NCBI GenBank assembly: GCA_029961745.1
Contig: CP124680.1
Coordinates: 5,456,001-5,520,000 of the forward strand
Direction: 5' to 3'
DNA from: Nocardioides sp. L-11A
GTDB taxonomy: Bacteria; Actinomycetota; Actinomycetes; Propionibacteriales; Nocardioidaceae
DNA: 64,000 nucleotides
Shown here: positions 33,057 to 51,014 of the stretch, piece by piece
How positions within the stretch are numbered: position 1 is the stretch's first letter
Layout: each line of letters starts with the position of its first letter
Translations under genes and position numbers: made by a program
The notes under the pieces: model-generated
Databases searched by the model: none
Told to the model about the DNA's origin: nothing
What the model saw: only the letters and a program-made list of their open reading frames with translations

Positions 33057-33374
33057 ATGGCACACACCGGATCCGGCGCGGAGCACCAGCACAGCTACAT
33101 CGCCAACCGCACCAAGGACGACTACCTCAAGCGGCTGCGCCGCATCGAGGGCCAGGCGCGGGGGCTGCAGCGGATGGTCGAGGAGGAGCAGTACTGCATC
33201 GACATCCTCACCCAGGTCTCCGCGATGACGAAGGCGCTCCAGTCCGTTGCCCTCGGCCTGCTCGACGAGCACATGGCGCACTGCGTCGTGGACGCCGCCA
33301 AGGAAGGGGGCGAGGAGGCCGCGATCAAGCTCAAGGAGGCCTCCGACGCCATCGCCCGCCTGGTCCGATCCTGA
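33057..33374 (+). CDS. csoR: Copper-sensing transcriptional repressor CsoR
   Basis: A 105-residue all-helical repressor of the DUF156 family. The copper-binding triad is intact: Cys47 (EEQYC), His72 and Cys76 (HMAHC), with the same spacing as Cys36-His61-Cys65 of M. tuberculosis CsoR. Cu(I) binding releases it from DNA. It starts at the ATG at 33057, is divergent from the DHA2 exporter, and heads the copper operon csoR-copZ-secreted protein-copA. Confidence 0.93.
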   Translation: MAHTGSGAEHQHSYIANRTKDDYLKRLRRIEGQARGLQRMVEEEQYCIDILTQVSAMTKALQSVALGLLDEHMAHCVVDAAKEGGEEAAIKLKEASDAIARLVRS

Positions 33375-33418
33375 CGCCTCCCGCACGTTCCCACCCGCAC
33401 CACAGGAAGGAGCTCGCC

Positions 33419-33625
33419 ATGAGCACCACCCGGACCTTCACCGTCACCGGCATGACCTGCGGCCACTGCGTCGCCTCCGTCACCGAGGAGGTGCAGGAGA
33501 TCGACGGCGTCGAGAACGTCACGGTCGACCTGCCCACCGGTGCGGTCACGATCACCAGCGCCGCACCCCTCGACGAGTCCGCCGTGCAGGCGGCCGTCGA
33601 GGAGGCCGGCTACCAGCTCGCATGA
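33419..33625 (+). CDS. copZ: Copper chaperone CopZ (HMA domain)
   Basis: A 68-residue single heavy-metal-associated domain with the Cu(I)-binding motif MTCGHC (Cys14, Cys17), a ferredoxin-like beta-alpha-beta fold and a C-terminal VQAAVEEAGYQL helix. It delivers Cu(I) to the P-type ATPase in the cytoplasm. A GGAAGGAG site precedes the ATG at 33419. Its stop overlaps the next gene by 4 nt. Confidence 0.93.
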   Translation: MSTTRTFTVTGMTCGHCVASVTEEVQEIDGVENVTVDLPTGAVTITSAAPLDESAVQAAVEEAGYQLA

Positions 33626-34599
33626 ACACCCCGACGCGGCTCGCCGGCTTCGGAGCCGTCGCCGCCGGCGTGTTCGGCATCGCGCTCCTCGTCGGCCAGG
33701 CCGTCGGCCCGGTCGCCGCCAGCGACACCGGGCCACCCAGCCACGACACGCATGCCGGCGCCACCGACACCAGCGGCGACACCGGGGGTGACCCCGCGCA
33801 GGGCTCCGCCGAGGCGGAGACCGAGATCCCAGGAGGACTCATGACATCGCAGGACGGATACACCCTCACCCTCGACCGGGCCCGGGCCAACCCCGGCGAC
33901 GCGGTCCCGGTGAGCTTCACCATCACCGGTCCCGACGGCACCCCCGTGACGTCGTACGACGTGCAGCACGAGAAGCAGCTCCACCTGATCGCGGTCCGCC
34001 GCGACTTCACCGGCTTCCAGCACGTCCACCCCACCCTCGACGGCGGCACCTGGTCGATCGACCTGGCCCTCACGCCCGGGACCTGGCGGCTCTTCGCGGA
34101 CTTCAAGGCCACCGACGGCGAGGCGCTCACCCTGGGTGCCGACCTCGCGGTGGACGGTGCCTTCGAGGCCGCGCCGCCCGCGCCGGAGACCCGCACCGTC
34201 ACGGTCGACGGCTACCAGGTCACCCTCGACGGCGACGTGGAGGCCGGTGCCCACGCGAAGCTCACGCTGAGCGTGAGCAAGGACGGGAGGCCGGTCACCG
34301 ACCTGCAGCCCTACCTCGGCGCCTACGGCCACCTGGTGGCCCTGCGCTCCGGCGACCTCGCCTACCTGCACGTCCACCCCGACGGCGAGCCCGGCGACGG
34401 TACGACGCAGCCGGGGCCGGACATCGTGTTCCACACGGCCGTCCCCAGCGCCGGGACCTACCACCTCTACCTCGACTTCCAGCACGACGGCGTCGTCCGC
34501 ACCGCGGCCTTCGCGGTCAGCGCCGGGGGCGAGGCGAGCCCGAAGCCGGCCGGCGAGCCGAGCACAGGACAAGGAGAGAGCAGTGGCCACGCACACTGA
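33622..34599 (+). CDS. Exported protein of the copper operon with duplicated HVHP domains
   Basis: A 325-residue exported protein. A hydrophobic N-terminal segment (~10-30) serves as signal or anchor and is followed by a His/Thr/Asp-rich linker. Two related beta-rich halves follow, ~115-165 and ~235-290. Each has a hydrophobic strand, an HVHP motif (134-137 and 250-253) and a [13 protein letters not shown] strand. The tail ends GHAH. Coupling to copZ (ATGA overlap) and a 17-nt overlap with copA imply an extracytoplasmic copper-binding role, which is inference. I do not recognise a named family. Confidence 0.72.
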
Positions 34600-36901
34600 C
34601 CCCGCCACGCCCGCCACGCCCGACAGCCCCGAGCAGCAGGTCGAGCTCGCCCTCACCGGGATGACCTGCGCCTCCTGCGCCAACCGCATCGAGCGCAAGC
34701 TCAACAAGCTCGACGGCGTCACCGCGACGGTCAACTACGCGACGGAGAAGGCGAAGGTCTCCTACGCCGACAGCGTCTCCACCGACGACCTGCTCGCCGC
34801 CGTCGAGGCGGCCGGGTACGGCGCGTCGCTGCCCAAGCCGCCCGCCTCGGCGGGCGGCGGGGACGAGGCCGGTGACCAGGCGGCTGACGACCCGATCCGA
34901 CCGTTGCGGCAGCGGCTGGTGATCTCCGCCGTGCTGTCGGTGCCGGTGATCGCGATGGCGATGGTGCCGGCACTCCAGTTCGACTACTGGCAGTGGCTCT
35001 CGCTCACCCTGGCCGCGCCGGTCGTGCTGTGGGGCGCCTACCCGTTCCACAAGGCGGCCTGGACCAACCTGCGCCACGGCACGTCCACCATGGACACGCT
35101 GATCTCGCTCGGCACCCTCGCCGCGCTGGGCTGGTCGCTCTACGCCCTGTTCTGGGGCACCGCCGGCGTGACCGGCATGACGCACCCCTTCGAGCTCACC
35201 ATCGAGCGCAGTGACGGCAGCGGCAACATCTACCTCGAGGCCGCAGCGGGCGTCACGACGTTCATCCTGGCCGGGCGCTACTTCGAGCAGCGCTCGAAGC
35301 GGCGGGCGGGGGCGGCGCTCAAGGCGCTGCTCGAGCTCGGCGCCAAGGAGGTCGCGGTCCTCGGGCCCGACGGTGTCACCGAGACGAAGATCCCCGTGGA
35401 GCAGCTGGCCGTGGGCGACCTGTTCGTCGTCCGGCCGGGCGAGAAGATCGCGACCGACGGAGTGGTCGAGCGCGGCAGCTCCGCCGTCGACGCCTCGATG
35501 CTCACCGGGGAGTCCGTGCCCGTCGAGGTCGGCGAGGGCGATGCGGTCGTCGGCGCGACGGTCAACGCGGGCGGCCGGCTGGTCGTCCGGGCCACCCGGG
35601 TCGGCGGCGACACCCAGCTCGCCCAGATGGCGCGCCTGGTCGAGGACGCCCAGAACGGCAAGGCCCAGGTCCAGCGCCTGGCCGACCGGATCTCCGGCAT
35701 CTTCGTCCCGATCGTGATCGTGCTCGCGGCCGGCACCCTCGGCTTCTGGCTGGGCACCGGCAACGGGCTCGCGGCGGCCTTCACGGCGGCGGTCGCCGTC
35801 CTCATCATCGCCTGCCCCTGCGCCCTCGGACTGGCCACGCCGACCGCCCTCATGGTCGGCACCGGCCGCGGCGCGCAGCTCGGCATCCTGATCAAGGGAC
35901 CCGAGGTGCTGGAGTCGACCCGCTCGGTCGACACCGTCGTCCTCGACAAGACCGGCACGGTCACCACCGGCAGGATGACGCTGCGCGACGTGATCGCGGG
36001 CGAGGACGAGGACGCCGCCGAGGTCCTGCGGTACGCCGGCGCGCTCGAGGACGCCTCCGAGCACCCGATCGCCCGGGCCATCGCCGACGCGGCGCGCGAG
36101 CAGCACGGCACGCTCCCGGCGGTCGAGGACTTCGCCAACGTCGAGGGCCTCGGGGTGCAGGGCGTGCTGGTGGACGACAGCGACGAGGGGACCAGCCACG
36201 CCGTCCTGGTCGGGCGGCCGCAGCTCCTCGCGGAGTGGTCGCAGCGCCTCTCCCCCGCGCTGCAGGAGGCGCTCGAGCAGGCCCAGGCGACCGGCGGCAC
36301 CGCCGTCGCGGTCGGCTGGGACGGGCAGGCCCGGGGCGTGGTCGTGGTCGCGGACGCGATCAAGCCGACCTCGGCCACCGCCATCGCCCAGTTGCGCGAG
36401 CTCGGTCTGCGCCCGGTGCTGCTGACCGGCGACAACGCCGTCGTGGCCCGGACCGTCGCCGCCGAGGTCGGCATCGACGAGGCCGACGTCATCGCCGACG
36501 TACTGCCGGCCGACAAGGTCGACGTCGTCAAGGGGCTGCAGGGCGAGGGCAAGGTCGTCGCCATGGTCGGCGACGGTGTCAACGACGCCGCCGCGCTCGC
36601 CCAGGCCGATCTCGGCCTGGCCATGGGCACCGGCACCGACGTGGCGATCGAGGCCAGCGACCTCACCCTGGTGCGCGGCGACCTCCAGGTCGCGGTCGAC
36701 GCGATCCGGCTCTCGCGCCGGACGCTCGCCACGATCAAGGGCAACCTGTTCTGGGCCTTCGCCTACAACGTCGCCGCCCTGCCACTGGCCGCCGCCGGCC
36801 TGCTCAACCCGATGCTGGCCGGCGCCGCGATGGCGTTCTCGTCCGTGTTCGTGGTGTCCAACAGCCTGCGGTTGCGGCGGTTCAAGGCCACCGCCGCCTG
36901 A
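34583..36901 (+). CDS. copA: Copper-exporting P1B-type ATPase
   Basis: This 772-residue pump has one N-terminal HMA domain with CASC (Cys29, Cys32), eight or so membrane helices, the TGE actuator motif (308-310), the Cu(I) transport motif CPC (411-413), phosphorylation site DKTGT (Asp455), the nucleotide-binding HP motif (SEHPIA) and [10 protein letters not shown] in the hinge. The inter-domain linker (~83-105) is Gly/Asp rich. The GTG at 34583 follows AAGGAGAG. It exports Cu(I) from the cytoplasm and is the last gene of the operon. Confidence 0.94.
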
Positions 36902-42113: not shown

Positions 42114-42719
42114 TCAGGTCAATCCGGTCGCCGCGAACGCCCGGGCGTAGATCTCCCGCACCACCCGCTCCTTGCGGGCGTTGTACTGCATGCCGTGCTC
42201 CCCCGCGGCGGTCGAGGCGGCGGACGCGGCGAGCTTGGCCGCGGCGTACCGCTCACGCTCGTCGGGGTTGCCGCGCAGCCAGTCGCGGAAGATCCGGTGC
42301 CGGACGACCTCGGGGCTCTCGGGGCCGAAGACGTGCAGGTGGCTCACCGGCTCCGCGCCGCGCAGCAGCCGGTGCTCGTGCCACCACGGCTCACGGATCC
42401 GCAGCGCGAATCCGACCTCCTCCAACGCCGGCACGTACGCCGCCTCGTCGGCCGGGTCGGCGACGACGAGGTCGATGTCGATGACCGGCTTGGCGGGCAG
42501 GCCGGGGACGGCGGTGGAGCCGACGTGCTCGACGGTGAGCGCCCGCCAGCCGAGGGCGTCCCTGACCGCGGCGGCGATCTCCGCGAACCGCGCCGGCCAC
42601 GCGGGGTCGGGAGGGACGACGGCGACGTCCGGGCTGGGTCCGGCACCATCGACCCACGGCGAGGAGCCGGGCGGGGCGGGCTCCTCGTGGAAGGTGACGA
42701 TCTCGGCGCGGGTGGGCAC
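42114..42719 (-). CDS. GrpB-family nucleotidyltransferase-fold protein
   Basis: A 201-residue protein with the nucleotidyltransferase-like motif VEHVGSTAVPGLPAKPVIDI, followed by LHVFGPESPEVVRHRIFRDW, as in the GrpB/UPF0157 family. The GTG at 42719 lies 2 nt after the response-regulator stop, so it is the last gene of the VanX-like/racemase/ligase/two-component operon. Some family members are fused to CoaE-type kinases; this one is free-standing. Its function in the operon is unknown. Confidence 0.83.
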   Translation of the reverse strand: MPTRAEIVTFHEEPAPPGSSPWVDGAGPSPDVAVVPPDPAWPARFAEIAAAVRDALGWRALTVEHVGSTAVPGLPAKPVIDIDLVVADPADEAAYVPALEEVGFALRIREPWWHEHRLLRGAEPVSHLHVFGPESPEVVRHRIFRDWLRGNPDERERYAAAKLAASAASTAAGEHGMQYNARKERVVREIYARAFAATGLT

Positions 42720-42721
42720 GA

Positions 42722-43387
42722 TCAGCCCACCAGGCCGTGCTCGTGGGCGAAGACCACGATCTGCACCCGGTCGCGCAGGCCCAGCTTGCGCAAGATGGCG
42801 CCGACGTGGGTCTTGACCGTCGACTCGCTGAGGAACACCCGCCCGGCGATCTCCTGGTTGGACAGGCCCTTCGCGACCGCCCCGAAGACCTCGCGCTCCT
42901 TGTCGGTGAGGCCGAGGTACGCCGGCGGCGGGGTCACGGCGGCCTGGAACTGGCTGTCGAGCAGGGTGGACAGGTCGGCCGGGGCGAGCACCGCGTTGCC
43001 GGAGTGGACCGTGCGGATCGCGTCGCGCAGCATCACCGGCGTGGTGCCCTTGAGGAGGAACCCGCTGGCGCCGTACCGGATCGCGGTGGCGGCCCGGTCG
43101 TCGAGGTTGAAGGTGGTCAGCACGATCACCCGCACCGGGCGCTCGCGGCGGGCGGTGCGGTCGGGCAGGAAGATCTGGCGGGTCGCCTCGACCCCGTCCA
43201 TCTCCGGCATCCGGATGTCCATCAGCACCACGTCGGGCGCGAGCTCGTCGACCTGGCGCACGGCCTCGACGCCGTCGGCCGCGGTGCCGATCACCCCCAT
43301 GCCCTCCTGGGCGTCGACGATCACCCGCACTCCCTCGCGGAACAGCTCCTGGTCGTCGACGAGAAGGACCTTGATCGGCTCGCTCAC
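42722..43387 (-). CDS. NarL/FixJ-type response regulator
   Basis: A 221-residue regulator. The receiver domain (~1-130) has the acidic pair (LLVDD, Asp11 and Asp12), phospho-acceptor Asp57 (VVLMDIRMPEMDG) and the conserved Lys in FLLKG. The C-terminal LuxR helix-turn-helix (~155-215) has LTDKEREVFGAVAKGLSNQE and SESTVKTHVGAILRKL. It pairs with the histidine kinase 8 nt upstream. Known VanR proteins are OmpR-type, so this would be a different control logic for the cell-wall genes. Confidence 0.9.
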   Translation of the reverse strand: MSEPIKVLLVDDQELFREGVRVIVDAQEGMGVIGTAADGVEAVRQVDELAPDVVLMDIRMPEMDGVEATRQIFLPDRTARRERPVRVIVLTTFNLDDRAATAIRYGASGFLLKGTTPVMLRDAIRTVHSGNAVLAPADLSTLLDSQFQAAVTPPPAYLGLTDKEREVFGAVAKGLSNQEIAGRVFLSESTVKTHVGAILRKLGLRDRVQIVVFAHEHGLVG

Positions 43388-43395
43388 ACCCGCGA

Positions 43396-44679
43396 TTATC
43401 GCGCCCGCACCGGCACCCAGGCGGTCGCGGTGAAGGTCGGCGGGTCGGTGCGCCGGCGGACGTCCAGTCGGCCGCCGACCGCCTCGAGCCGTCGCCGCAT
43501 GCCGTCCAGTCCCTGGCCACCTGCCGGCGGAGGCTGGACCGGAGGCGGCGGGGGCGGAGGCAGCGGGACCGCGATCGGGTGGGTCACGTCGAGTGCCGGG
43601 TCGGGCTCGGCGACGGGCTCCGGCAGCGCGTTGCGCACCTCGATCCGCAGGTCGCCGTCCCAGTGCCGCTCGACGTGCACCGGCTGATCGCGCGGTCCGT
43701 GCTTGATCGCGTTCGTGAGCATCTCCTGGAGGACCCGGAAGGCCACGACGGCGAGCTCGGGCGGCATCGGCTGCGGCGTACCGACCTCGGTCGTGAGCAC
43801 CTGGTGACCGCTGGCCCGCACGCCCTCGATCAGGCTGTCGAGATCGGCCTGCGGTCCGGCCGACGCCGCCGCCCCCGGCCGCTGCGCCGTGGAGGCGAGC
43901 ACCTGGCGGACGTCGTCGAGCGAGGACCGGGCCGAGGTGGCGATATTGGCCATCGTGAGCTTGAGGCCCTGGGTGTCGGCGTCCTCGAGGTACTGCGCGG
44001 ACTCGGCCTGCGCGAGGATCACGGCCAGCGAGTGACCGACGACGTCGTGCACGTCACGGGCCAGCTGGGCCTGCTCCTCCCGGAGCCGCGCGATCTCCTC
44101 GGCCTGGTCGCGCTGAGCCTCGGCGGCCACCTGCGAGCGGCGCGAGTCCTGCGAGCGGGAGGCGAAGCGCAGGGCCAGGCCGAGCAGCCAGGGCGTGGCG
44201 AGCAGCGCGATGCCGAGGATGCCCGCCGTCGCCCGCACGCCGTAGCCGCCGGCCCGGTACGCGTCCTCGGCCAGGCCGCCGATGCCCAGGTTGTCGAGTC
44301 CCTCGTAGAAGGAGTACGGCGAGAGCCAGACGACCGCGATCACCGCCCCGGCCGGGATGGACAGACCGCTGAGCCAGACCGTCGGGAGCCGTCCCCATCG
44401 CGCACACCCGAACGCGACGACGGCGAGCAGCACCTCGGTCACCATCGGGTCGACGCCGGTGAGCACCTGGAGCAGGCCGGTGAACCAGGCGACGGCGAGC
44501 GCGGCGCCGGGCAGTGCCCGCGACAGGCCGACCGCGACCGCGACGCCGGTGATGACCACGAGCGGTGGCCACAGCTCGACGTAGTAGTACCGGTTGATCT
44601 CGACCAGGCCGACCAGGAAGGCGGCGACGCCGGCCAGGAGGTCCGGCGCCCAGCGGGCCGCGCGGCTCGCCGGACTCAT
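43396..44679 (-). CDS. Membrane sensor histidine kinase (HisKA_3/NarX-DesK type)
   Basis: A 427-residue kinase with about five membrane segments in residues ~12-170, a coiled-coil (~180-205), a HisKA_3 dimerisation domain with phospho-acceptor His211 (LARDVHDVVGHSLAVI), and a HATPase_c domain containing EMLTNAIKHG and a late GGQGLDGMRRR. Inserted between them is a proline-rich loop (PLPPPPPPPVQPPP). The ATG at 44679 overlaps the acyltransferase stop by 4 nt. The ligand is unknown; the membrane part resembles no VanS sensor I know. Confidence 0.87.
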   Translation of the reverse strand: MSPASRAARWAPDLLAGVAAFLVGLVEINRYYYVELWPPLVVITGVAVAVGLSRALPGAALAVAWFTGLLQVLTGVDPMVTEVLLAVVAFGCARWGRLPTVWLSGLSIPAGAVIAVVWLSPYSFYEGLDNLGIGGLAEDAYRAGGYGVRATAGILGIALLATPWLLGLALRFASRSQDSRRSQVAAEAQRDQAEEIARLREEQAQLARDVHDVVGHSLAVILAQAESAQYLEDADTQGLKLTMANIATSARSSLDDVRQVLASTAQRPGAAASAGPQADLDSLIEGVRASGHQVLTTEVGTPQPMPPELAVVAFRVLQEMLTNAIKHGPRDQPVHVERHWDGDLRIEVRNALPEPVAEPDPALDVTHPIAVPLPPPPPPPVQPPPAGGQGLDGMRRRLEAVGGRLDVRRRTDPPTFTATAWVPVRAR

Positions 44680-45647
44680 GCCGTGACCTCGGCCCCGGTC
44701 GGTCGGCGCGTCCACCGACGCTGGAGCGGCGCCTCGACGTACCGCCAGGAGAGCATGGCCGCGACCAGGGTCAGCAGCACCGCGGGGAGCGGGGGCAGCC
44801 AGAGCGAGAGCGGGTAGTTCCACAGGTACGCCGCGTAGGACACGGTGCCCAGCGCCACGAGCACCCGGAGCGGCCCGGTCACCGTGACCCGGCTCCGGCA
44901 GGCGAGGATCAGCACACCGGTCAGCGCGGCGATGGCCGGACCTCCTGCCAGGTAGGTGAGGGCATGTCCCCGCAAGGGAACCACACTCAGCACCGCGAGG
45001 GCGGCCAGGGCCGCGGGCGCCGCCCGGGCCGGGAGCCGGGGCGCCAGCCGGTCGCCGTAGAGCCGCACGGCGGCGCCGATCACGAAGCACCCGGCCCAGC
45101 TGGTGGGCAGCGCGTACGCGAGATCGGGGTCCTCGGCCAGCCACCAGGTCGTCGCCAGGCAGGCCAGGGCGGTGCCGACGGCGGCGACGAGCAGGGCCCG
45201 GCCGCGGCCGAGCAGGAGCAGGGCGGCGGGCCACAACAGGTAGAACTGCTCCTCGGTCGCCAGGGTCCACAGGTGGAAGGTCGCGTCGCTGGCGTGGCCG
45301 AACGGCAGGTTGCCCGTCCAGGTCAACGCCCACAGCACGGTCCAGCCGAGCTCGTCCCGGTCGCCGAGTGGGTCGGCGACCAGCGTCACCAGCACCACGC
45401 CCGCGACCAGCACCAGCAGCGGCGGCACCAGGCGCCGGGCGCGGCGCAGGTAGAAGTCGCGCAGCGGCGGACGTCGCTCCAGCACGCCGGTGATGAGGTA
45501 GCCCGAGAGCGCGAAGAACATGACGACACCGACGACGCCGGCCCCCGGCGCGAGGTCGGGCAGCGCATGGCGCAACAGGACCAGACCGACCGCGATCCCC
45601 CGGAGCAGGTCCAGGCCGGCCACGCGCTCCGGGCGTGGCGGCCTCAC
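44676..45647 (-). CDS. Acyltransferase-3 family membrane protein (VanTm-like)
   Basis: A 323-residue membrane protein with about ten hydrophobic segments and acyltransferase_3 hallmarks: the N-terminal GLDLLRGIAVGLVLLRH with the catalytic-type His, then FFALSGYLITG and FYLRRARRLVPP. The GTG at 45647 overlaps the ligase stop by 4 nt. In VanT serine racemases this same domain is fused to the racemase as a membrane module. Here it is a separate gene in the same operon, as described for VanTm of VanL-type clusters. O-acylation of a surface glycan is the alternative. Confidence 0.82.
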   Translation of the reverse strand: MRPPRPERVAGLDLLRGIAVGLVLLRHALPDLAPGAGVVGVVMFFALSGYLITGVLERRPPLRDFYLRRARRLVPPLLVLVAGVVLVTLVADPLGDRDELGWTVLWALTWTGNLPFGHASDATFHLWTLATEEQFYLLWPAALLLLGRGRALLVAAVGTALACLATTWWLAEDPDLAYALPTSWAGCFVIGAAVRLYGDRLAPRLPARAAPAALAALAVLSVVPLRGHALTYLAGGPAIAALTGVLILACRSRVTVTGPLRVLVALGTVSYAAYLWNYPLSLWLPPLPAVLLTLVAAMLSWRYVEAPLQRRWTRRPTGAEVTA

Positions 45648-46582
45648 CGGTGGGCGCCGCGGACCAGCTCGTCGAGCAGGTCCGGGTAGGTCATGCCGGC
45701 GGCGGCGAACATGCGGGGTGCTTGGGAGTGCTCGGTCATGCCGGGCATCGTGTTCACCTCGTTGAGCACGGGGCCGGCCTCGGTGAGGAAGAAGTCGACC
45801 CGGGCGACCCCCGCGCAGCCCAGCGCCTCGAACACCCCGGTCGCCGCGTCCTGCAGGGCCTTGGCGTCGGTGTCGGCCAGCGCCGCGGGGATCCGGAAGT
45901 CCGCGTGCCCGCCGTACTTCGCGTCGTAGTCGAAGATGCCGTCGGTCACGATCTCCAGCGCGGGCGGGACGAACAGGCTGCCGTCCGCCCGGCGCAGCAC
46001 CGCCACGTCGACCTCCCGGCCGACGACCAGGTCCTCCACCAGCACCCGGTCGTCGAGCGCGAAGGCGGCCTCCAGGGCCGGTGCCAGCGCCTCGGGTACG
46101 TCGACCCGGCTCACGCCCTGGCTCGATCCGGCGGCGACCGGCTTCACCACCACCGGATGGGTCCAGCGCCGGTGGGCCGCGGTCGCGGGCGTGACCAGGA
46201 CGCCGGGCGCCGTCGCGATGCCGACCGCCTGGGCGACCAGCTTGGTGGCCCACTTGTCCATCGCCAGCGCACCGGGGCGGATGCCGCTGCCGACGTACGG
46301 GAGGCCGGCGAGCTCGCACAGCGCGGCGAGCGCACCGTCCTCGCCGCGCGGACCGTGCACGACCGGGAACACGACGTCGCAGCCGCGCAGCACCTGGGCC
46401 GCGCCGCTGAGCCCGATCGGGCGCAGGCCGCGGTCGCGCCAGGTGCCGTCCCGGCCGATGGTCAGCGAGACGACGTCGTAGGTCGCCGGGTCGAGCGCCC
46501 CCGCGACCGACGCGGCGGAGGCCAGCGACACGTCGTGCTCGCAGTTCGCGCCGCCGCCGATGACGGCCACCCGGGTCCTCAT
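45644..46582 (-). CDS. D-Ala-D-X ligase (ATP-grasp; D-alanine-D-alanine or D-alanine-D-serine type)
   Basis: This 312-residue ATP-grasp ligase matches Ddl/Van ligases. Glu15 (CEHDVSL) corresponds to DdlB Glu15, GSSQG (152-156) to the Ser150 region, and the omega-loop FDYDAKYGG carries Lys222-Tyr223 like DdlB Lys215-Tyr216. The metal and phosphate site is NEVNTMPGMTEHS (274-286). The KY omega loop argues for D-Ala-D-Ala or D-Ala-D-Ser and against VanA-type D-lactate ligation. I use the ATG at 46582, in a 4-nt overlap with the racemase. It also overlaps the acyltransferase gene by 4 nt. Confidence 0.87.
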   Translation of the reverse strand: MRTRVAVIGGGANCEHDVSLASAASVAGALDPATYDVVSLTIGRDGTWRDRGLRPIGLSGAAQVLRGCDVVFPVVHGPRGEDGALAALCELAGLPYVGSGIRPGALAMDKWATKLVAQAVGIATAPGVLVTPATAAHRRWTHPVVVKPVAAGSSQGVSRVDVPEALAPALEAAFALDDRVLVEDLVVGREVDVAVLRRADGSLFVPPALEIVTDGIFDYDAKYGGHADFRIPAALADTDAKALQDAATGVFEALGCAGVARVDFFLTEAGPVLNEVNTMPGMTEHSQAPRMFAAAGMTYPDLLDELVRGAHR

Positions 46583-47754
46583 GCCCCGCTCCGCGTGGAC
46601 AGCGGCCGCAGGTACGGCGCGGCGAGGGTCCGGCGCTCGACACGAGCTCCGATGCCCGTGACGATCTCGTGCTCGATGGTGTCCGCCCAGGCCGCCCATT
46701 CGGCGACCGTGGGCTCACCGGCGGCACCGGGACCGAAGACGGTGACCTGCTCCCCGGCCTCCGCGCCGGTCCGGCCGAGATCGACGACCACCTGGTCCAT
46801 CGAGATCCGGCCGACGACGGGGCAGCGGGTGCCGCGGACCAGTACCTCGGCACGGCCGGAGGCGACGCGCGGCAGGCCGTCGGCGTACCCCAGCGGGAGC
46901 AGGCCGAGCCGGGTGGCGCGGGTCGTGCGGTGCGCGTGGCGGTAGCCGACCGGGGTACCGGCGCGGACCCGACGCACCTGCACCAGCGGGGCGGTCAGCG
47001 TCATCGCCGGCTCCAGGACCGTGGTCCCGGAAGGGTCGATGCCGACCAGGCCGGCGCCCACCCGGCTCATCGTGTGGTGGGCACGCGGGTCGGTGAGGGT
47101 GGCGGCGGTCGCGGCGAGATGCCGCTCGCGCGGACGCAGGCCGGCGCCGCGAGCGGCCTCGACGGCCCACGCGAACCGCGTGCGGCCGAGGGCGTTGCAG
47201 TCGTCGGCGGGATCCTCGGCGCAGCCGAGGTGGCCCATCACGCCGACGACCTCGAGCTGCCCGCGGAGCTCGGCGCGACGCGCGGCCCGGCACAGTGCGG
47301 CCCACTCCTCCGGCTCGGCCCCGTCCCGGGCCATGCCGGCGTCGACGTGGAGGTGGACCCGGTTGCGGCCCGGTCCGGCCGCGACCGCGGCCAGGTGCGT
47401 GAGGCTCGGAACCGCCACATCGACGTCCCGGACGGCGGCCGCGGGGAAGTCGGCGTCGACCGGGTTGAGCCAGCTAAGGATCGGCGCCACGAGGCCCGCG
47501 TCGCGCAGCACCCATGCCTCGGCCAGGCTGGTGACCCCGAGCCGGGTCGCGCCGTGGGCCAGTGTGGTCCGGGCCACGTCGACCGCGCCGTGACCGAAGC
47601 CGTCGGCCTTGACCACGGCCATCAGCTCGCCCGACGCACGGTCGGCGAGGGTCCGGGTGTTGCGGGCGACGGCGCCCAGGTCGACGGCGAGCCGCGGCTC
47701 CGACCGCGACGCCGGGTCGAGCGGTCGCACGGCGAGGCTGCCCGGGCCGGTCAT
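46579..47754 (-). CDS. Alanine/serine racemase (fold-type III PLP; VanTr-like)
   Basis: A 391-residue PLP racemase. The PLP lysine is Lys49 in VVKADGFGHG (canonical KANAYGHG), Arg143 lies in DAGMARDG, the catalytic Tyr is Tyr271, and GRISMDQ is intact (315-321). The position equal to Tyr354 of Geobacillus Alr, Asn in the VanT serine racemase, is His362 here (DTIEHEI in place of TINYEV). A substrate other than L-alanine, such as L-serine, is therefore possible. It overlaps the dipeptidase and ligase genes by 4 nt each. A housekeeping Alr role cannot be excluded. Confidence 0.86.
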   Translation of the reverse strand: MTGPGSLAVRPLDPASRSEPRLAVDLGAVARNTRTLADRASGELMAVVKADGFGHGAVDVARTTLAHGATRLGVTSLAEAWVLRDAGLVAPILSWLNPVDADFPAAAVRDVDVAVPSLTHLAAVAAGPGRNRVHLHVDAGMARDGAEPEEWAALCRAARRAELRGQLEVVGVMGHLGCAEDPADDCNALGRTRFAWAVEAARGAGLRPRERHLAATAATLTDPRAHHTMSRVGAGLVGIDPSGTTVLEPAMTLTAPLVQVRRVRAGTPVGYRHAHRTTRATRLGLLPLGYADGLPRVASGRAEVLVRGTRCPVVGRISMDQVVVDLGRTGAEAGEQVTVFGPGAAGEPTVAEWAAWADTIEHEIVTGIGARVERRTLAAPYLRPLSTRSGA

Positions 47755-48374
47755 GCCGCCACGGCCGAGGCGAGGGGGCCGTAGAGCCCGTGGGGAGCAC
47801 CGGTCGTCAGGGCCCAGTACCGGTCGCCGTAGCTCCAGTGCCACCACTCCGTCGGGTAGTTCACCAGCCCCTGCGAGCGGAGCACCCGGGCGAGCACGGT
47901 GCGGTGCGCCCGGGCGTCGGCACCGATCCCCGCTGCCGCGAACCAGCAGCGGCCGTCGCTCTGCTCCGGCGTCGCGTCGATCGCCGTGCCGAGGTCGAGC
48001 TCGTCGCCGCAGACGTCCACCAGGGTGAGGTCGACCGCCGCGCCCGCCACGTGCGGTGCCACGTCGACGGGCGCCACGAACCGGCTGGTCAGCCGCTCCA
48101 GCGCCTGGTCGCCGATGCCCGGGTGCAGCGCGGCCAGCTCGGCGCCGTACGACGCCACGATGGCGCGCTGCTCCGCCATCGGTCGGAAGCCCTCGACCAC
48201 GCGGAGCCGGATGCCGGCGGGCAGCAGCCGGTCGGCCGCGTCGAGGCGGTCCGCGAGTCCGGCGCGGACCACGGCACCGGCCGGCGAGAGGTCCCGAGGG
48301 AGGCGCACCAGCGGCTCCCCGCACTCGACGACGGGCACCGCGCGGACGCGGGGATCGGACAGGAGGATCGTCAT
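47751..48374 (-). CDS. D-Ala-D-Ala dipeptidase, VanX-like (peptidase M15D)
   Basis: A 207-residue cytoplasmic-type zinc dipeptidase with the VanX catalytic set: Arg64 (VEGFRPMAEQR), His108 and Asp115 (HVAGAAVDLTLVD), Glu176 and His179 (EWWHW). Spacings agree with VanX Arg71, His116, Asp123, Glu181 and His184 to within one residue. There is no signal peptide. The ATG at 48374 lies 7 nt after a TAGCGT -10, preferred over a GTG at 48383. As first gene of the operon it would hydrolyse D-Ala-D-Ala while the ligase makes a variant dipeptide; dipeptide salvage is the alternative. Confidence 0.87.
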   Translation of the reverse strand: MTILLSDPRVRAVPVVECGEPLVRLPRDLSPAGAVVRAGLADRLDAADRLLPAGIRLRVVEGFRPMAEQRAIVASYGAELAALHPGIGDQALERLTSRFVAPVDVAPHVAGAAVDLTLVDVCGDELDLGTAIDATPEQSDGRCWFAAAGIGADARAHRTVLARVLRSQGLVNYPTEWWHWSYGDRYWALTTGAPHGLYGPLASAVAA

Positions 48375-48387
48375 GCGGACCACGCTA
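48375..48387 (-). promoter_or_regulatory. Leaderless-type -10 element of the VanX-like operon
   Basis: On the minus strand TAGCGT (48387-48382) is followed after 7 nt by the ATG at 48374, with no Shine-Dalgarno site. No good -35 match and no clear operator was seen upstream, so control by the operon's own response regulator is not evident. Confidence 0.55.
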
Positions 48388-48414
48388 GGAAGGAGGGACC
48401 CCTCACCACCTCCG

Positions 48415-48442
48415 CCTGAGGTGCCGGTCGGCAGTCCTCAGG
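48415..48442 (-). terminator. Hairpin, possible terminator of the Calx-beta gene
   Basis: CCTGAGG (48415-48421) and CCTCAGG (48436-48442) form a 7-bp stem with a 14-nt loop, 12 nt downstream of the Calx-beta stop on the minus strand. A direct repeat (AGGTGCCGG twice) overlaps it. There is no U-tract. Confidence 0.45.
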
Positions 48443-48453
48443 TGCCGGAGCGC

Positions 48454-49533
48454 TCAGCCCGCGGGTGGGTACGCCGCCACGCCGCTCCCGCTCAGGCTCC
48501 AGCTGTTGTCGTAGGTCAGCGTGGGTGGGTTCGCCGTACCGGCGTAGGTGTAGCGGTCGACGGACACCCGGTTGCTCACCGGCTGCTCGGGCGTGGCATG
48601 GCTGTTGTAGACGAGCGCTCCTCCGAACCCGCCCTGGCCGACCCGCCCGGCGGCGTTGCCCGGACTGCCGCCGCACGACACCGGCATGTCGCCGGCATCG
48701 GTGTTCACCGGAGCGAGGAGGAGGCTGTAGTCCCAGGCGGCCGGATCCTCGTCGTACCCGAGGCCGGCGGCGGTGACGTCGACGGTGAACGCTCCCGTGA
48801 GCTGGGGGCCGGTGAGGGTGCCTGCTCCGGTGCAGGATCCGCTCGCGGTCCAGTTCACGGTGGCGGACTGGACGACGTAGTGGACCTGCTGGTCCGCCCA
48901 CGGCGTGCCCAGCACCGGGTCGTTCGGCTGGAACACGTAGGTGATGGTGCCGCTCCACTCCACGTGCAGGCTGTCCGGCACCGTGCCGCCGCTGTAGACG
49001 GCGGTCTTCGTGGTGCCCGACAGCGAGCCCGAGATGGTCTGCGGGAAGGGCGTGGCGCCGGGGCCTCCCGGTCCCGAGCCGCCGGGGCCGTCGTCGTCGA
49101 GGATCGTGACCGGCACCTTGGCCGGCCGCACCTTCGCGGCTCCCTTGACCTTGACGTAGAACGTCTCGGTCGGCTCGGCCACCGTGTCGTCGAGGATCGC
49201 CACCTTCACCTTCGCGCTCTTGCGTCCCTTCTTGATCGTGACGCTGCCCCGGGCCGCCTTGAAGTCGCTCCCCGCCTTCGCCGATCCGGCAACGGTCGAC
49301 CAGGACAGGGCGAGACTCCGCGGCGCCTTCTTCGCCAGCCTCAACCTCACGATCGCCGTGCCGGCCTGTTCCGACACGGTCACCGGAGTGGCCGTGGCCC
49401 CGGGCTTGGCCAGGACCATGGCCGGGAGTGCGGTCGCCGGGGTCGCTGCGAGCACCGCGGGTACGACGAGTGGTCCGGTCGCGAGGAGGACGGCGGCACG
49501 GCGCAGGCATGGGCGCAGGCGTGGGGAGACCAT
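48454..49533 (-). CDS. Secreted protein with Calx-beta domain
   Basis: A 359-residue exported protein. The signal peptide (~1-36) ends near ATPATALPA. A Calx-beta-type domain follows (~45-150: AGTAIVRLRLAKKAPRSLAL, GSDFKAARGSVTIKKGRK, ILDDTVAEPTETFYV). A Gly/Pro linker (DDDGPGGSGPGGPG) leads to a C-terminal beta-rich domain of unknown type with a possible Cys pair (~230 and ~300). Calx-beta domains bind calcium and are common in adhesins. There is no sortase motif, so it is probably released or loosely attached. Confidence 0.78.
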   Translation of the reverse strand: MVSPRLRPCLRRAAVLLATGPLVVPAVLAATPATALPAMVLAKPGATATPVTVSEQAGTAIVRLRLAKKAPRSLALSWSTVAGSAKAGSDFKAARGSVTIKKGRKSAKVKVAILDDTVAEPTETFYVKVKGAAKVRPAKVPVTILDDDGPGGSGPGGPGATPFPQTISGSLSGTTKTAVYSGGTVPDSLHVEWSGTITYVFQPNDPVLGTPWADQQVHYVVQSATVNWTASGSCTGAGTLTGPQLTGAFTVDVTAAGLGYDEDPAAWDYSLLLAPVNTDAGDMPVSCGGSPGNAAGRVGQGGFGGALVYNSHATPEQPVSNRVSVDRYTYAGTANPPTLTYDNSWSLSGSGVAAYPPAG

Positions 49534-49604: not shown

Positions 49605-51014
49605 TCAGGCGGCGCGTGGTCGGGCGGGGTGGTAGGTGATCTTGCCGTGGAGTGAGGTGAGGGTGGCGCGGGGTGGTGGGGTCCACACGGGTTGACCTGT
49701 GTCGGGGTCGATGTGGACGGCCCAGGGGGTCTGGTGGATGAGTGTGTGGTGGTAGCGGCAGAGCATGACGAGGTTGTCGAGACTGGTGGGGCCGCCGTCG
49801 GCCCAATGCACGACGTGGTGGGCGTCGCAGGCCAGGGGCATGCGGGTGCAGCCGGGGAAGGCGCAGTGCCGGTCGCGGGCGATCAGGGCGGTCCACAGGG
49901 CGGTGGTGACGAGGCGTTGGGTGCGTCCGACGTCGAGGACCTGGCTGGTGGTGCCGAGGACGGCGGGGATGATCTCGGCGTCGCAGGCCATGCGGCGTAC
50001 GGCGCTCGCGGAGAGTCGGGCGCCGGTGGGGGTCTGGCCCTCGCGGGCGAGTCCGGCGTCGATGACCTGTTGGCGGAGGGATTCTTGGTCGATGAGCACG
50101 ATCACGCGGGGTTTGGTGCCGTGGTCGCGGGGGAGGTCGTCGTCGCTGTTGGCGAGTCGCTCGCAGGCGTCGACGAGCGCGTCCCACAGGCGGGCGCCGG
50201 CGTCGCGGGGGTCGCGGCCGTCGTGGCCGCAGCCCGGGGTCAGGCACGGGGTCTGGGTCGAGATGCCGTCGTTGTCGAACATCGGCTCGCCCGGTTGGCG
50301 GTTGGTCCCGCCGCAGGCGCCGGGCTCCGAAGTCGCGGGGGCGGCCAAGGGATGCAGGGTGGCTTTGATCTTCTCGGCGTCCTCGAGGGTGCCGTAGCCG
50401 GTGACCTTGACCCCGCCGTGGCCGTCTTCGGCGAAGCGGAGGTGGCGGGCGTGGTGGGCGCCGCGTTCGGCCTTGACACGTTCCTTGTCCGCGTTGACGA
50501 GCGCCGCGTCGGGGTCGAGGTCGCGCACGACCTCACCGAACCTGGCCTGCAGGTCGGTTGCGTCGAGGCCCTCGCTGGTGGCCAGGTCGAGCATCCCGCC
50601 GGCGACCTGCTCACGGAACTCGGGCACCCGGGGCAGGGTGGCGACCCTGTCCGCGATCGCGCGTGCCTGGGGGAGGGTGATCCGCCCGTCCTCCAAGGCC
50701 TCGCGCACCGCGGGAAGCCCGGCGAGCCGACCGGCAGCACGGACCAGTCCCCCACCCATCCCTTTGTGGCCACCGAGGAGGTGGGTGAGGAGGTCCTTCG
50801 CGGAGGCCCAGCCGGTCTCGAGCAGCGCGTCGTCGCCGTCCAAGCGGCCGGCGATCCCGACCAGCGCCGCATCGACCAGCCCCCGTGCTGCGGCCACCGC
50901 GGTGGCGACCTCGACCGTCTCGGCGCCGGACAACTCGGACCACGGTGTCTGGGCTAGCTCCTGGGCGTGCGCGACCACGGCGGTGGCCGTGTCGAGCGCT
51001 CCGGGAGAAGGCAT
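49605..51014 (-). CDS. DUF222 / HNH endonuclease-domain protein (13E12-repeat type)
   Basis: This 469-residue protein has an N-terminal DUF222 region (~10-330) and a C-terminal HNH nuclease domain (~375-440): CAFPGCTRMPLACDAHHVVH with LDNLVMLCRYHHTLIH, giving the zinc cysteines and catalytic His. Such genes are multicopy in Nocardioides and mycobacteria (the 13E12 family of M. tuberculosis). Its promoter carries a perfect SOS box (51027-51042), implying induction by DNA damage. Its cellular function is not known. Confidence 0.9.
   Translation of the reverse strand: MPSPGALDTATAVVAHAQELAQTPWSELSGAETVEVATAVAAARGLVDAALVGIAGRLDGDDALLETGWASAKDLLTHLLGGHKGMGGGLVRAAGRLAGLPAVREALEDGRITLPQARAIADRVATLPRVPEFREQVAGGMLDLATSEGLDATDLQARFGEVVRDLDPDAALVNADKERVKAERGAHHARHLRFAEDGHGGVKVTGYGTLEDAEKIKATLHPLAAPATSEPGACGGTNRQPGEPMFDNDGISTQTPCLTPGCGHDGRDPRDAGARLWDALVDACERLANSDDDLPRDHGTKPRVIVLIDQESLRQQVIDAGLAREGQTPTGARLSASAVRRMACDAEIIPAVLGTTSQVLDVGRTQRLVTTALWTALIARDRHCAFPGCTRMPLACDAHHVVHWADGGPTSLDNLVMLCRYHHTLIHQTPWAVHIDPDTGQPVWTPPPRATLTSLHGKITYHPARPRAA

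What the first reader, a model, noticed from the sequence alone, without database searches (positions are those of the whole stretch)
43396..48374. Coupled operon of VanX-like dipeptidase, racemase, D-Ala-D-X ligase, acyltransferase and two-component system: a split VanT-type cassette
Five genes overlap successively by 4 nt. VanT serine racemases of D-Ala-D-Ser resistance are fusions of an acyltransferase-3 membrane domain and a racemase; here both halves are separate genes in one operon with the dipeptidase and ligase, as in VanL-type clusters. The ligase has a Lys-Tyr omega loop (not the D-lactate type). The kinase/regulator pair is NarL-type, unlike VanRS. This could be an uncharacterised peptidoglycan-precursor remodelling system or a vancomycin-resistance ancestor.
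Basis: partly seen in the sequence, partly recalled or inferred. Interest (0 to 1): 0.75.

Follow-up and report, generated by a model that had tools for sequence, protein, structure and literature searches.

The report
Inducible Van-like cell-wall precursor cassette
A soil bacterium related to Nocardioides carries a dedicated, separately regulated set of genes that looks built to swap the last building block of its cell-wall precursor for another D-amino acid, much as some vancomycin-resistant enterococci do, but apparently assembled independently; the chemistry is inferred, not yet shown.

Summary
The operon is real: dipeptidase (DIPX), racemase (RAC), ligase (LIG), acyltransferase (AT3) and kinase (HK) overlap by 4 nt each; the regulator (RR) follows 8 nt later. 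Housekeeping alr and ddl lie elsewhere. In 80 named actinobacterial loci RAC accompanies LIG in 79, DIPX in 65, AT3 in 36. LIG has Phe and Gln at two acceptor-site positions in 80/80 (29/29 control Ddl: Tyr, Met); RAC has His for the alanine-specificity tyrosine in 76/78 and lacks the carbamylated lysine in 77/77 readable (controls 29/29 Tyr, Lys). A tandem ACCTSAGG operator near -52 accompanies HK/RR (43/56 loci; 1/24 without) and has one zero-mismatch site in the genome. Best reading: an inducible D-Ala-D-X precursor-remodelling cassette, X probably D-Ser, built independently of VanC/E/G/L/N. 'Split VanT' is not supported: AT3 matches no VanT membrane model and RAC groups with actinobacterial Alr. 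Related racemase-Ddl-VanY and pdx sets are published (PMC8698665); I found no report of this one in the open library searched. All activities are inferred.

The parts
48434..48447 (-). distal half of the putative RR operator, CGGCACCTGAGGAC
   Evidence: read; GAGGACAG core within 2 mismatches in 38 of the 43 HK-positive loci with a good proximal site, 11% of shuffled stretches
48409..48426 (-). proximal operator, CGGCACCTCAGGCGGAGG, at -52 from the DIPX ATG
   Evidence: at most 2 mismatches to CGGCACCTSAGGYGGAGG in 43 of 56 HK/RR-positive loci and 1 of 24 others; only zero-mismatch site in the genome
48382..48387 (-). putative -10 element TAGCGT; first base 13 nt before the ATG, suggesting a leaderless transcript (inference)
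   Evidence: TAGCGT within 1 mismatch in 40 of 53 HK-positive non-edge loci, 32 of them at -13, and in 7 of 24 others
47751..48374 (-). DIPX, VanX-like M15 D,D-dipeptidase (ATG at 48374; an upstream GTG at 48383 is possible)
   Evidence: Pfam PF01427; catalytic R67, H111, D118, E179, H182 in 66 of 66
46579..47754 (-). RAC, fold-III amino-acid racemase with altered active site
   Evidence: Pfam PF01168/PF00842; residue counts
45644..46582 (-). LIG, D-Ala-D-X ligase (ATP-grasp, Ddl superfamily)
   Evidence: Pfam PF07478/PF01820; residues; model pLDDT 90.2 matching Ddl, VanA and VanG chains
44676..45647 (-). AT3, acyltransferase-3 membrane protein, optional in relatives
   Evidence: Pfam PF01757; present in 36 of 80 loci, directly after LIG in 36 of 36
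43396..44679 (-). HK, HisKA_3 sensor kinase with five or six predicted hydrophobic segments
   Evidence: Pfam PF07730; simple hydropathy
42722..43387 (-). RR, NarL/LuxR-type response regulator, best solved match VraR
   Evidence: Pfam; PDB search
42114..42719 (-). GrpB-family gene directly downstream; neighbour of this site rather than part of the cassette
   Evidence: Pfam PF04229; in the 80 named loci GrpB appears after RR in L061, L062, L064, L065 and, one gene further on, L067

Best explanation
The cassette is an inducible peptidoglycan-precursor remodelling system. HK and RR form a cell-wall-stress pair of the VraSR/LiaSR kind; phosphorylated RR binds the tandem ACCTSAGG sites just upstream of the promoter and switches on one polycistronic transcript. 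DIPX removes D-Ala-D-Ala made by the housekeeping ligase. RAC makes a D-amino acid other than D-Ala, most likely D-Ser. LIG joins D-Ala to it, and the housekeeping MurF puts D-Ala-D-X on the precursor, lowering binding of drugs or competitor peptides that recognise D-Ala-D-Ala. AT3, where present, probably adds an acyl group outside the membrane or aids supply, and is dispensable. Shown by sequence: gene order, conservation, altered active sites, co-occurrence of operator and HK/RR, intact dipeptidase residues. Inferred: every enzymatic activity, the identity of X, the inducer, and any resistance.
For: Separate housekeeping Ddl and Alr in the genome; an orthologue of the own Ddl at E<=1e-110 in 51 of the 54 genus genomes with LIG. 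Conserved unit: RAC 79, DIPX 65, RR 57, HK 55, AT3 36 of 80 named loci; 72 loci (71 named plus the window) with two or more flanking genes called on both sides fall into 27 genomic contexts. LIG: Phe at the DdlB Tyr210 equivalent, Tyr at Tyr216, Gln at Leu282, each 80 of 80; the 29 closest phylum-wide Ddl controls have Tyr/Tyr/Met in 29 of 29. VanG (4FU0) has Phe, Lys-Tyr and Arg there. RAC: His at BsAlr Tyr354 in 76 of 78 (one Asn, one gap), Lys129 replaced by His or Gln in 76 of 78 (one Phe, one gap), with Arg136, Arg219, Tyr265 in 78 of 78 and Lys39 in 77 (one gap); Alr controls have Tyr354 and Lys129 in 29 of 29. The one VanT in hand has also lost both (Asn, Ala). DIPX catalytic set 66 of 66. 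Operator and regulator co-occur, with one perfect genomic site. RR's nearest solved chain is VraR. One genome replaces DIPX by a VanY-type carboxypeptidase and the NarL-type pair by an OmpR-type pair next to RAC-LIG. A RAC-LIG fusion exists on a Streptomyces plasmid.
Against: No activity has been measured. [quoted passage not shown] Gln instead of the Arg of VanB, VanM and VanG at the Leu282 position means X need not be D-Ser. Phe at the Tyr210 position is not exclusive: a Nonomuraea ligase with Val at 282 also has it. RAC position 137 (Asp 78 of 78) also varies among ordinary Alr, and the distant members depart: the fusion keeps Lys129 and Asn-Ser, G403 has Gly at 137 and Tyr43. DIPX is absent in 15 of 80 loci (three of them, L077, L082 and L095, cut by contig ends), so it is not indispensable. 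More than 3 mismatches to the operator remain in 10 of 53 non-edge HK-positive loci as anchored by my script; the loci are related, so counts are not independent; at up to 3 mismatches the window alone has 1 match against 1.33 expected. In NCBIfam RR scores best with NarL (152 bits, below its cut-off), and DevR and NarL follow VraR in the PDB list. I have no phenotype for this organism.
Confidence: 0.6

Rival explanations
1. Drug-insensitive backup of the two D-cycloserine targets: RAC still makes D-Ala and LIG still makes D-Ala-D-Ala, but altered active sites resist D-cycloserine or similar inhibitors, and the two-component system induces them under stress.
For: Alr and Ddl are exactly the two D-cycloserine targets (recalled); integron-borne Ddl variants that make only D-Ala-D-Ala give D-cycloserine resistance (PMC7691350, abstract start and passages); LIG and RAC exceed Ddl and Alr family cut-offs; DIPX is missing in 15 of 80 loci.
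Against: A VanX-like dipeptidase with all catalytic residues is present in 65 of 80 loci, which would make a futile cycle. The changed residues lie where acceptor and amino-acid specificity are set, and they are fixed or nearly so.
Confidence: 0.16
2. A dipeptide-making unit for another product: D-Ala-D-X feeds a secondary metabolite, a surface polymer or a developmental cell-wall change, with DIPX for turnover and AT3 acylating the product.
For: AT3 follows LIG in 36 of 80 loci; 16 of 80 loci, among them the Lentzea ones, have DIPX-RAC-LIG-AT3 and no HK/RR; a racemase-ligase fusion exists.
Against: Neighbours differ among 27 contexts; I noticed no recurring biosynthetic genes by eye but did not search for them. 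RR is nearest to VraR among solved chains; one genome has a VanY-type carboxypeptidase beside RAC-LIG.
Confidence: 0.14
3. One reading: a split VanT-type cassette homologous to VanL-type clusters, or the ancestor of enterococcal D-Ala-D-Ser resistance.
For: Same set of part types as VanL-type clusters (as the finding describes them); Lys-Tyr omega loop and Phe as in VanG.
Against: AT3 is unlike VanT membrane domains; RAC groups with actinobacterial Alr (98/96 for that branch, one VanT in the tree) and LIG lies outside the VanG/VanB/VanM group.
Confidence: 0.05

Closest known systems
D-Ala-D-Ser vancomycin-resistance operons (VanC/E/G/L/N)
   Same: racemase + D-Ala-D-X ligase + D,D-peptidase + two-component system; Lys-Tyr omega loop; Phe at the DdlB Tyr210 position as in VanG; racemase has lost the specificity tyrosine and the carbamylated lysine as in the one VanT compared
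   Different: ligase has Gln, not Arg, at the Leu282 position and is a separate clade; racemase groups with actinobacterial Alr and has His; VanX-like dipeptidase rather than VanXY; NarL-type rather than OmpR-type regulator; AT3 not VanT-like and optional
vanRSY with racemase and Ddl-like genes in Allonocardiopsis opalescens, Murinocardiopsis flavida and some Geodermatophilales (PMC8698665, passages and section 10)
   Same: racemase and Ddl-like gene pair beside van-like genes; the authors already suggested a D-Ala-D-Ser-like mechanism; genome G403 found here looks the same (RAC-LIG, VanY, OmpR-type pair)
   Different: they report vanRS + VanY; here VanX-like DIPX leads the operon, with a NarL-type pair and its own operator. 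I did not compare their sequences
pdx operon of Micromonosporales (PMC8698665, passages)
   Same: PLP enzyme + Ddl-like ligase + VanX-like dipeptidase + two-component pair
   Different: its PLP enzyme is a PALP-type serine/threonine dehydratase-like protein and the pair is VanRS-like
VraSR/LiaSR cell-wall-stress two-component systems
   Same: HisKA_3 kinase and NarL-family regulator; VraR is the best solved match to RR
   Different: here the pair is encoded in, and apparently devoted to, one enzyme cassette; NCBIfam ranks NarL first
Housekeeping Alr and Ddl
   Same: fold, catalytic residues, family cut-offs
   Different: specificity residues replaced and conserved as such; separate housekeeping copies exist

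Membership tests
D-Ala-D-Ser Van operon | ligase over the curated D-Ala-D-Ser ligase score | tested here: not met
   NF000207 233 bits against 520; VanG model 239 against 495; a Subdoligranulum VanG passes the latter
D-Ala-D-Ser Van operon | Lys-Tyr omega loop (not D-lactate type) | tested here: met
   IFDYDAKY; Tyr216-equivalent Tyr in 80 of 80
D-Ala-D-Ser Van operon | Phe and Arg at the VanC2 250 and 322 positions (numbering recalled) | tested here: not met
   Phe 80 of 80, but Gln instead of Arg in 80 of 80; VanG 4FU0 has Phe and Arg
D-Ala-D-Ser Van operon | VanT racemase over curated score | tested here: not met
   NF033131 186 bits against 460
D-Ala-D-Ser Van operon | VanT membrane (AT3) domain or subunit | tested here: not met
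   no vanT-CELN or vanT-L-mem match for AT3; the AT3 profile scores -8.4 on one VanT membrane domain
D-Ala-D-Ser Van operon | VanRS (OmpR-type) regulation | tested here: not met
   Response_reg + GerE (LuxR) and HisKA_3
D-Ala-D-Ser Van operon | precursors ending in D-Ala-D-Ser | not testable with these tools
   needs mass spectrometry
VanX dipeptidase (M15D) | M15 family and Arg/His/Asp/Glu/His catalytic set (VanX roles recalled) | tested here: met
   PF01427 54 bits against 27; five residues 66 of 66, shared with VanX-B
VanX dipeptidase (M15D) | over the VanX equivalog score | tested here: not met
   35 bits against 320
VanHAX D-Ala-D-Lac operon | VanH dehydrogenase and non-Tyr omega loop | tested here: not met
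   no dehydrogenase family among the seven genes searched; Tyr retained
Housekeeping alanine racemase | Tyr354 and carbamylated Lys129 (BsAlr) | tested here: not met
   His 76 of 78; non-Lys 77 of 77 readable; controls 29 of 29 Tyr and Lys
Housekeeping D-Ala-D-Ala ligase | acceptor-site Tyr210 and hydrophobic residue at the Leu282 position | tested here: not met
   Phe and Gln 80 of 80; controls Tyr and Met 29 of 29
pdx operon | PALP-type dehydratase gene | tested here: not met
   PLP enzyme is of the Ala_racemase family
VraSR/LiaSR-type two-component system | HisKA_3 kinase with NarL-family regulator nearest VraR | tested here: inconclusive
   families met; nearest solved chain VraR but best NCBIfam model NarL; response to cell-wall drugs not tested

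The most novel reading that the evidence does not exclude
A third chemistry of target modification: the cassette ends precursors in a D-amino acid that is neither D-Ala, D-Lac nor D-Ser (the Gln of LIG and the Asp/His pair of RAC would suit a larger polar side chain). It would be a widespread, dedicated defence of Actinomycetota against molecules that bind D-Ala-D-Ala.
Probability: 0.2. Interest if true: 0.87.

Novelty: new variant of a known kind. Interest (0 to 1): 0.62.

Why it matters
If right, D-Ala-D-X precursor switching with an amino-acid X evolved at least twice, with matching active-site solutions (loss of the racemase tyrosine and carbamylated lysine, changed ligase acceptor site) in separate lineages, and soil actinobacteria keep a regulated version that homology searches with known van genes can overlook: the survey PMC8698665 found van-like genes, as it defined them, in 16 of 593 Propionibacteriales genomes and none in Actinopolysporales, while LIG is in 54 of 147 sampled genus genomes and the DIPX-RAC-LIG-AT3 set is in two Actinopolyspora, L131 and L139. 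It gives a directly testable pair of enzymes and a sensor with a single promoter.

Tried and rejected
Split VanT: rejected as homology after profile, family and tree tests. Plain housekeeping or salvage operon: rejected because separate alr and ddl exist and the specificity residues are changed. VanA-type cassette: no VanH among the genes searched, Tyr omega loop kept. A vanHAX cluster beside the cassette, suspected when a second ligase appeared about 4 kb away in G033, G042 and G146, turned out to be the housekeeping-type ddl by residues and neighbours (neighbours read by eye); in the own genome that site has ddl and no cassette. The residue after the GSS motif (Gln155): dropped as a determinant, since it varies (Q 25, H 24, F 20, L 6, R 4, K 1). 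Asn203 to Ala in RAC: not diagnostic, E. coli Alr also has Ala. Three borderline phylum hits at 44-49% (L152-L154) look like ordinary Ddl by their residues, read by eye. Regulon search: four further sites at two mismatches are below the reversed-pattern control (5 sites in all against 23). No relative in viral contigs. The AlphaFold model only confirmed the Ddl/Van fold; it ranks Ddl and Van chains alike and says nothing on X. Paper searches: aimed at this arrangement, at VanT and the residues; only PMC8698665 came close (passages, section 10; its figures and supplements not seen). The mBio 2015 VanT paper is not held. Other papers were seen as passages only: PMC12423673, PMC3485190, PMC6182600, PMC11273654, PMC12004154, PMC7691350, PMC8431993, PMC7325946. 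Gene calls in relatives come from my own simple caller; presence counts were redone by tblastn.

Rows dropped or missing before counts: the LIG set is 79 of 80 loci plus the window (L135 missed by my caller; its Phe217 and Gln287 are covered by the alignment). The RAC set is 77 loci plus the window (L082 starts inside LIG; L121 and L135 missed by the caller; read separately, L121 has IEHEI and L135 ISHTI at the Tyr354 site). DIPX set: 65 loci plus the window. The Ddl and Alr controls are the 29 best-scoring non-own genomes of 106 and 100 with a match, so they lean to the nearest homologues. Contexts: 29 for 79 named loci plus the window, 27 for the 72 with two or more flanking genes on both sides; eight were left out. 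Operator test: 56 HK/RR-positive loci include the window; three edge loci were set aside; of the 24 HK/RR-negative loci L079 is cut inside LIG, and L113 and L132 have a more distant regulator pair downstream.
Full report
What is there. On the - strand the window holds DIPX (48374-47751), RAC (47754-46579), LIG (46582-45644), AT3 (45647-44676) and HK (44679-43396), each overlapping the next by 4 nt, then RR (43387-42722) after 8 nt and a GrpB-family gene (42719-42114). Pfam assigns Peptidase_M15, Ala_racemase, Dala_Dala_lig, Acyl_transf_3, HisKA_3, Response_reg+GerE and GrpB. The genome is a single 5.68 Mb contig; its name is not given. The nearest named relatives of LIG are Nocardioides sp. 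LHD-245 (97%) and N. carbamazepini (94%), so a Nocardioides host is inferred.

Not the housekeeping copies. The genome has one other strong ligase match, at C1:2021697-2022818 (further PF07478 matches are at 47 bits or less), and one other racemase, at C1:4318065-4319237. Of the 147 genus genomes searched, 54 have LIG at 60% identity or more (counted from the match list), and 51 of these 54 also have an orthologue of the own Ddl at E<=1e-110; G018, G036 and G115 do not reach that threshold. DIPX is the only PF01427 match of the genome.

A travelling unit. A scan of named genomes gave 80 loci (the best 80 of 293) from Nocardioides, Pimelobacter, Jiangella, Actinopolymorpha, Motilibacter, Microlunatus, Lentzea, Saccharothrix, Actinophytocola, Actinokineospora, Actinopolyspora, Hamadaea, Gordonia, Nakamurella, Glutamicibacter and others. 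By tblastn RAC is beside LIG in 79 of 80 (in the other, L082, LIG starts at base 5 of its contig), DIPX in 65, AT3 in 36, HK in 55, RR in 57; AT3 comes directly after LIG in 36 of 36. Grouped by shared flanking genes, the 72 loci (71 named and the window) with two or more flanking genes on both sides fall into 27 contexts (29 when short contigs are kept). In a phylum sample of 396 genomes only G000 and G403 carry a LIG at 58% or more. The cassette is thus patchy and changes place, but the order is kept.

The ligase. Numbering is that of E. coli DdlB and VanC2, recalled. LIG keeps Glu15 (77 of 77 readable), and in 80 of 80 has Tyr at 216, Phe at 210 and Gln at 282. The 29 control Ddl have Tyr210 and Met282 in 29 of 29; E. 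coli DdlB has Tyr and Leu; VanB, VanM, VanG of Subdoligranulum and the VanG chain 4FU0 have Phe and Arg. A Nonomuraea ligase has Phe with Val, so Phe alone is not diagnostic. Among the references compared, Gln at 282 appears only in the racemase-ligase fusion. That VanC2 residues 250 and 322 set D-Ser specificity (Healy 1998) is recalled; I saw only the reference entry. LIG forms a clade of its own (100/100; 83/91 with the fused Streptomyces ligase), apart from VanB/VanM, two VanG-type and actinobacterial Ddl. Its family scores are best with Ddl models and below the cut-off of every van model shown (25 of 45 families shown): residues and membership point different ways, and I weigh the residues more.

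The racemase. Passages of PMC3485190 say that Tyr354 and Tyr265 of BsAlr confine the enzyme to alanine and that VanT has Asn at the Tyr354 place. RAC has His there in 76 of 78 (one Asn, one gap), His or Gln for Lys129 in 76 of 78 (one Phe, one gap), Asp at 137 in 78 of 78, Phe for Tyr43 in 75 of 78, and keeps Lys39 (77, one gap), Arg136, Arg219 and Tyr265 (78 each). Controls: Tyr354, Lys129 and Tyr43 in 29 of 29; position 137 varies among them. The Subdoligranulum VanT, which passes the curated VanT-G racemase score, has Asn and Ala at 354 and 129. RAC nevertheless groups with actinobacterial Alr (98/96), away from that VanT, though several reference branches are long and the tool warns of it. 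The likeness to VanT is therefore best read as convergence.

The dipeptidase. DIPX is a remote VanX relative (1r44, E=1.9e-6) with the five catalytic residues in 66 of 66. It would be wasteful beside a ligase that makes D-Ala-D-Ala. In G403, where my caller found no DIPX in the 16 kb fetched, a VanY-type carboxypeptidase (PF02557) stands next to RAC-LIG and an OmpR-type regulator/kinase pair is divergently placed: the same logic with other parts, and the arrangement that PMC8698665 reports for Allonocardiopsis and others.

The acyltransferase. A profile of 36 AT3 sequences does not find the membrane domain of the Subdoligranulum VanT (score -8.4 with filters off), and in NCBIfam AT3 hits only the SucT model, weakly. 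VanT's own AT3 domain is now thought to have an unrecognised function (PMC12423673, abstract and passages), so an accessory acylation is possible; I cannot say of what.

The switch. Upstream of DIPX lie CGGCACCTGAGGAC and, 21 bp on, CGGCACCTCAGGCGGAGG, then TAGCGT 13 nt before the ATG. CGGCACCTSAGGYGGAGG with at most two mismatches occurs in 43 of 56 loci with HK/RR, mostly at -50 to -52, against 1 of 24 without; that one (L079) ends inside LIG, so its HK/RR is unknown. Base-shuffled upstream regions average about 6 mismatches. With the window restricted and edges removed the counts are 42 of 53 and 1 of 24. Of the ten loci with more than three mismatches there, L080 has a perfect site at -132 from a start probably set too late and L122 has a one-mismatch site before its DIPX (read by eye). 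The distal core is found in 38 of 43 against 11% of shuffles. One zero-mismatch site exists in the genome; the four two-mismatch sites are below the reversed-pattern control. RR matches VraR best among solved chains (2e-41), followed by DevR and NarL. HK has five or six hydrophobic segments and no large outside domain by simple hydropathy. A dedicated, autoregulated cell-wall-stress circuit is the natural reading; the inducer is unknown.

Mechanism. HK senses a lesion at the membrane; RR activates a leaderless polycistron; DIPX clears D-Ala-D-Ala; RAC supplies D-X; LIG makes D-Ala-D-X; MurF (permissive, recalled) incorporates it. X is most likely D-Ser because the same sites are changed in VanT and VanG, but the Gln at 282 and Asp at 137 leave room for another polar D-amino acid. 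My probabilities: D-Ala-D-X with X not Ala 0.6; D-Ser itself about 0.4.

Known or new. PMC8698665 (passages and section 10) surveyed van-like genes across the phylum, found them in 16 of 593 Propionibacteriales genomes and none in Actinopolysporales, and described two neighbours of this idea: racemase-Ddl-VanY-RS sets, for which it already proposed a D-Ala-D-Ser-like mechanism, and the Micromonosporales pdx operon. Its Figure 7e, on Propionibacteriales arrangements, I could not see. My seven searches aimed at the arrangement listed no other description of the DIPX-RAC-LIG(-AT3) cassette with a NarL-type pair; subscription papers are largely outside that library. I therefore call it a new variant of a known kind.

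Noticed in passing
L143:4867-7068 (Streptomyces sp. SYP-A7193 plasmid, NZ_CP045548.1): A 733-aa racemase-ligase fusion, annotated alanine racemase, with His at the Tyr354 and Gln at the Leu282 position but Lys kept at 129.
   Followed up: partly
L157:6782-11430 (genome G403): RAC-LIG next to a VanY-type carboxypeptidase and a divergent OmpR-type regulator/kinase pair instead of DIPX and the NarL-type pair.
   Followed up: partly
L113 and L132 (Peterkaempfera, Actinacidiphila): RAC-LIG without DIPX, with a distant NarL-type regulator downstream (44-45% identical) and without the operator.
   Followed up: partly
L046:8432-10628 (genome G037): A second Ddl-like gene (28% to LIG) tail to tail with the housekeeping-type ddl.
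   Followed up: no
window 33057-36901: By eye: CsoR-like regulator, CopZ-like HMA protein, an unknown exported protein and a copper-type P-ATPase in a row.
   Followed up: no
window 48454-49533 and 49605-51014: By eye: a secreted Calx-beta-like protein just upstream of the cassette, ending 6 nt from the distal operator half, and a DUF222/HNH-type protein beyond it.
   Followed up: no
L156 (MT839293.1, unverified fecal phage contig): A ligase 41% identical to a VanG-type ligase on a 5.6 kb record labelled bacteriophage; possibly bacterial DNA.
   Followed up: no
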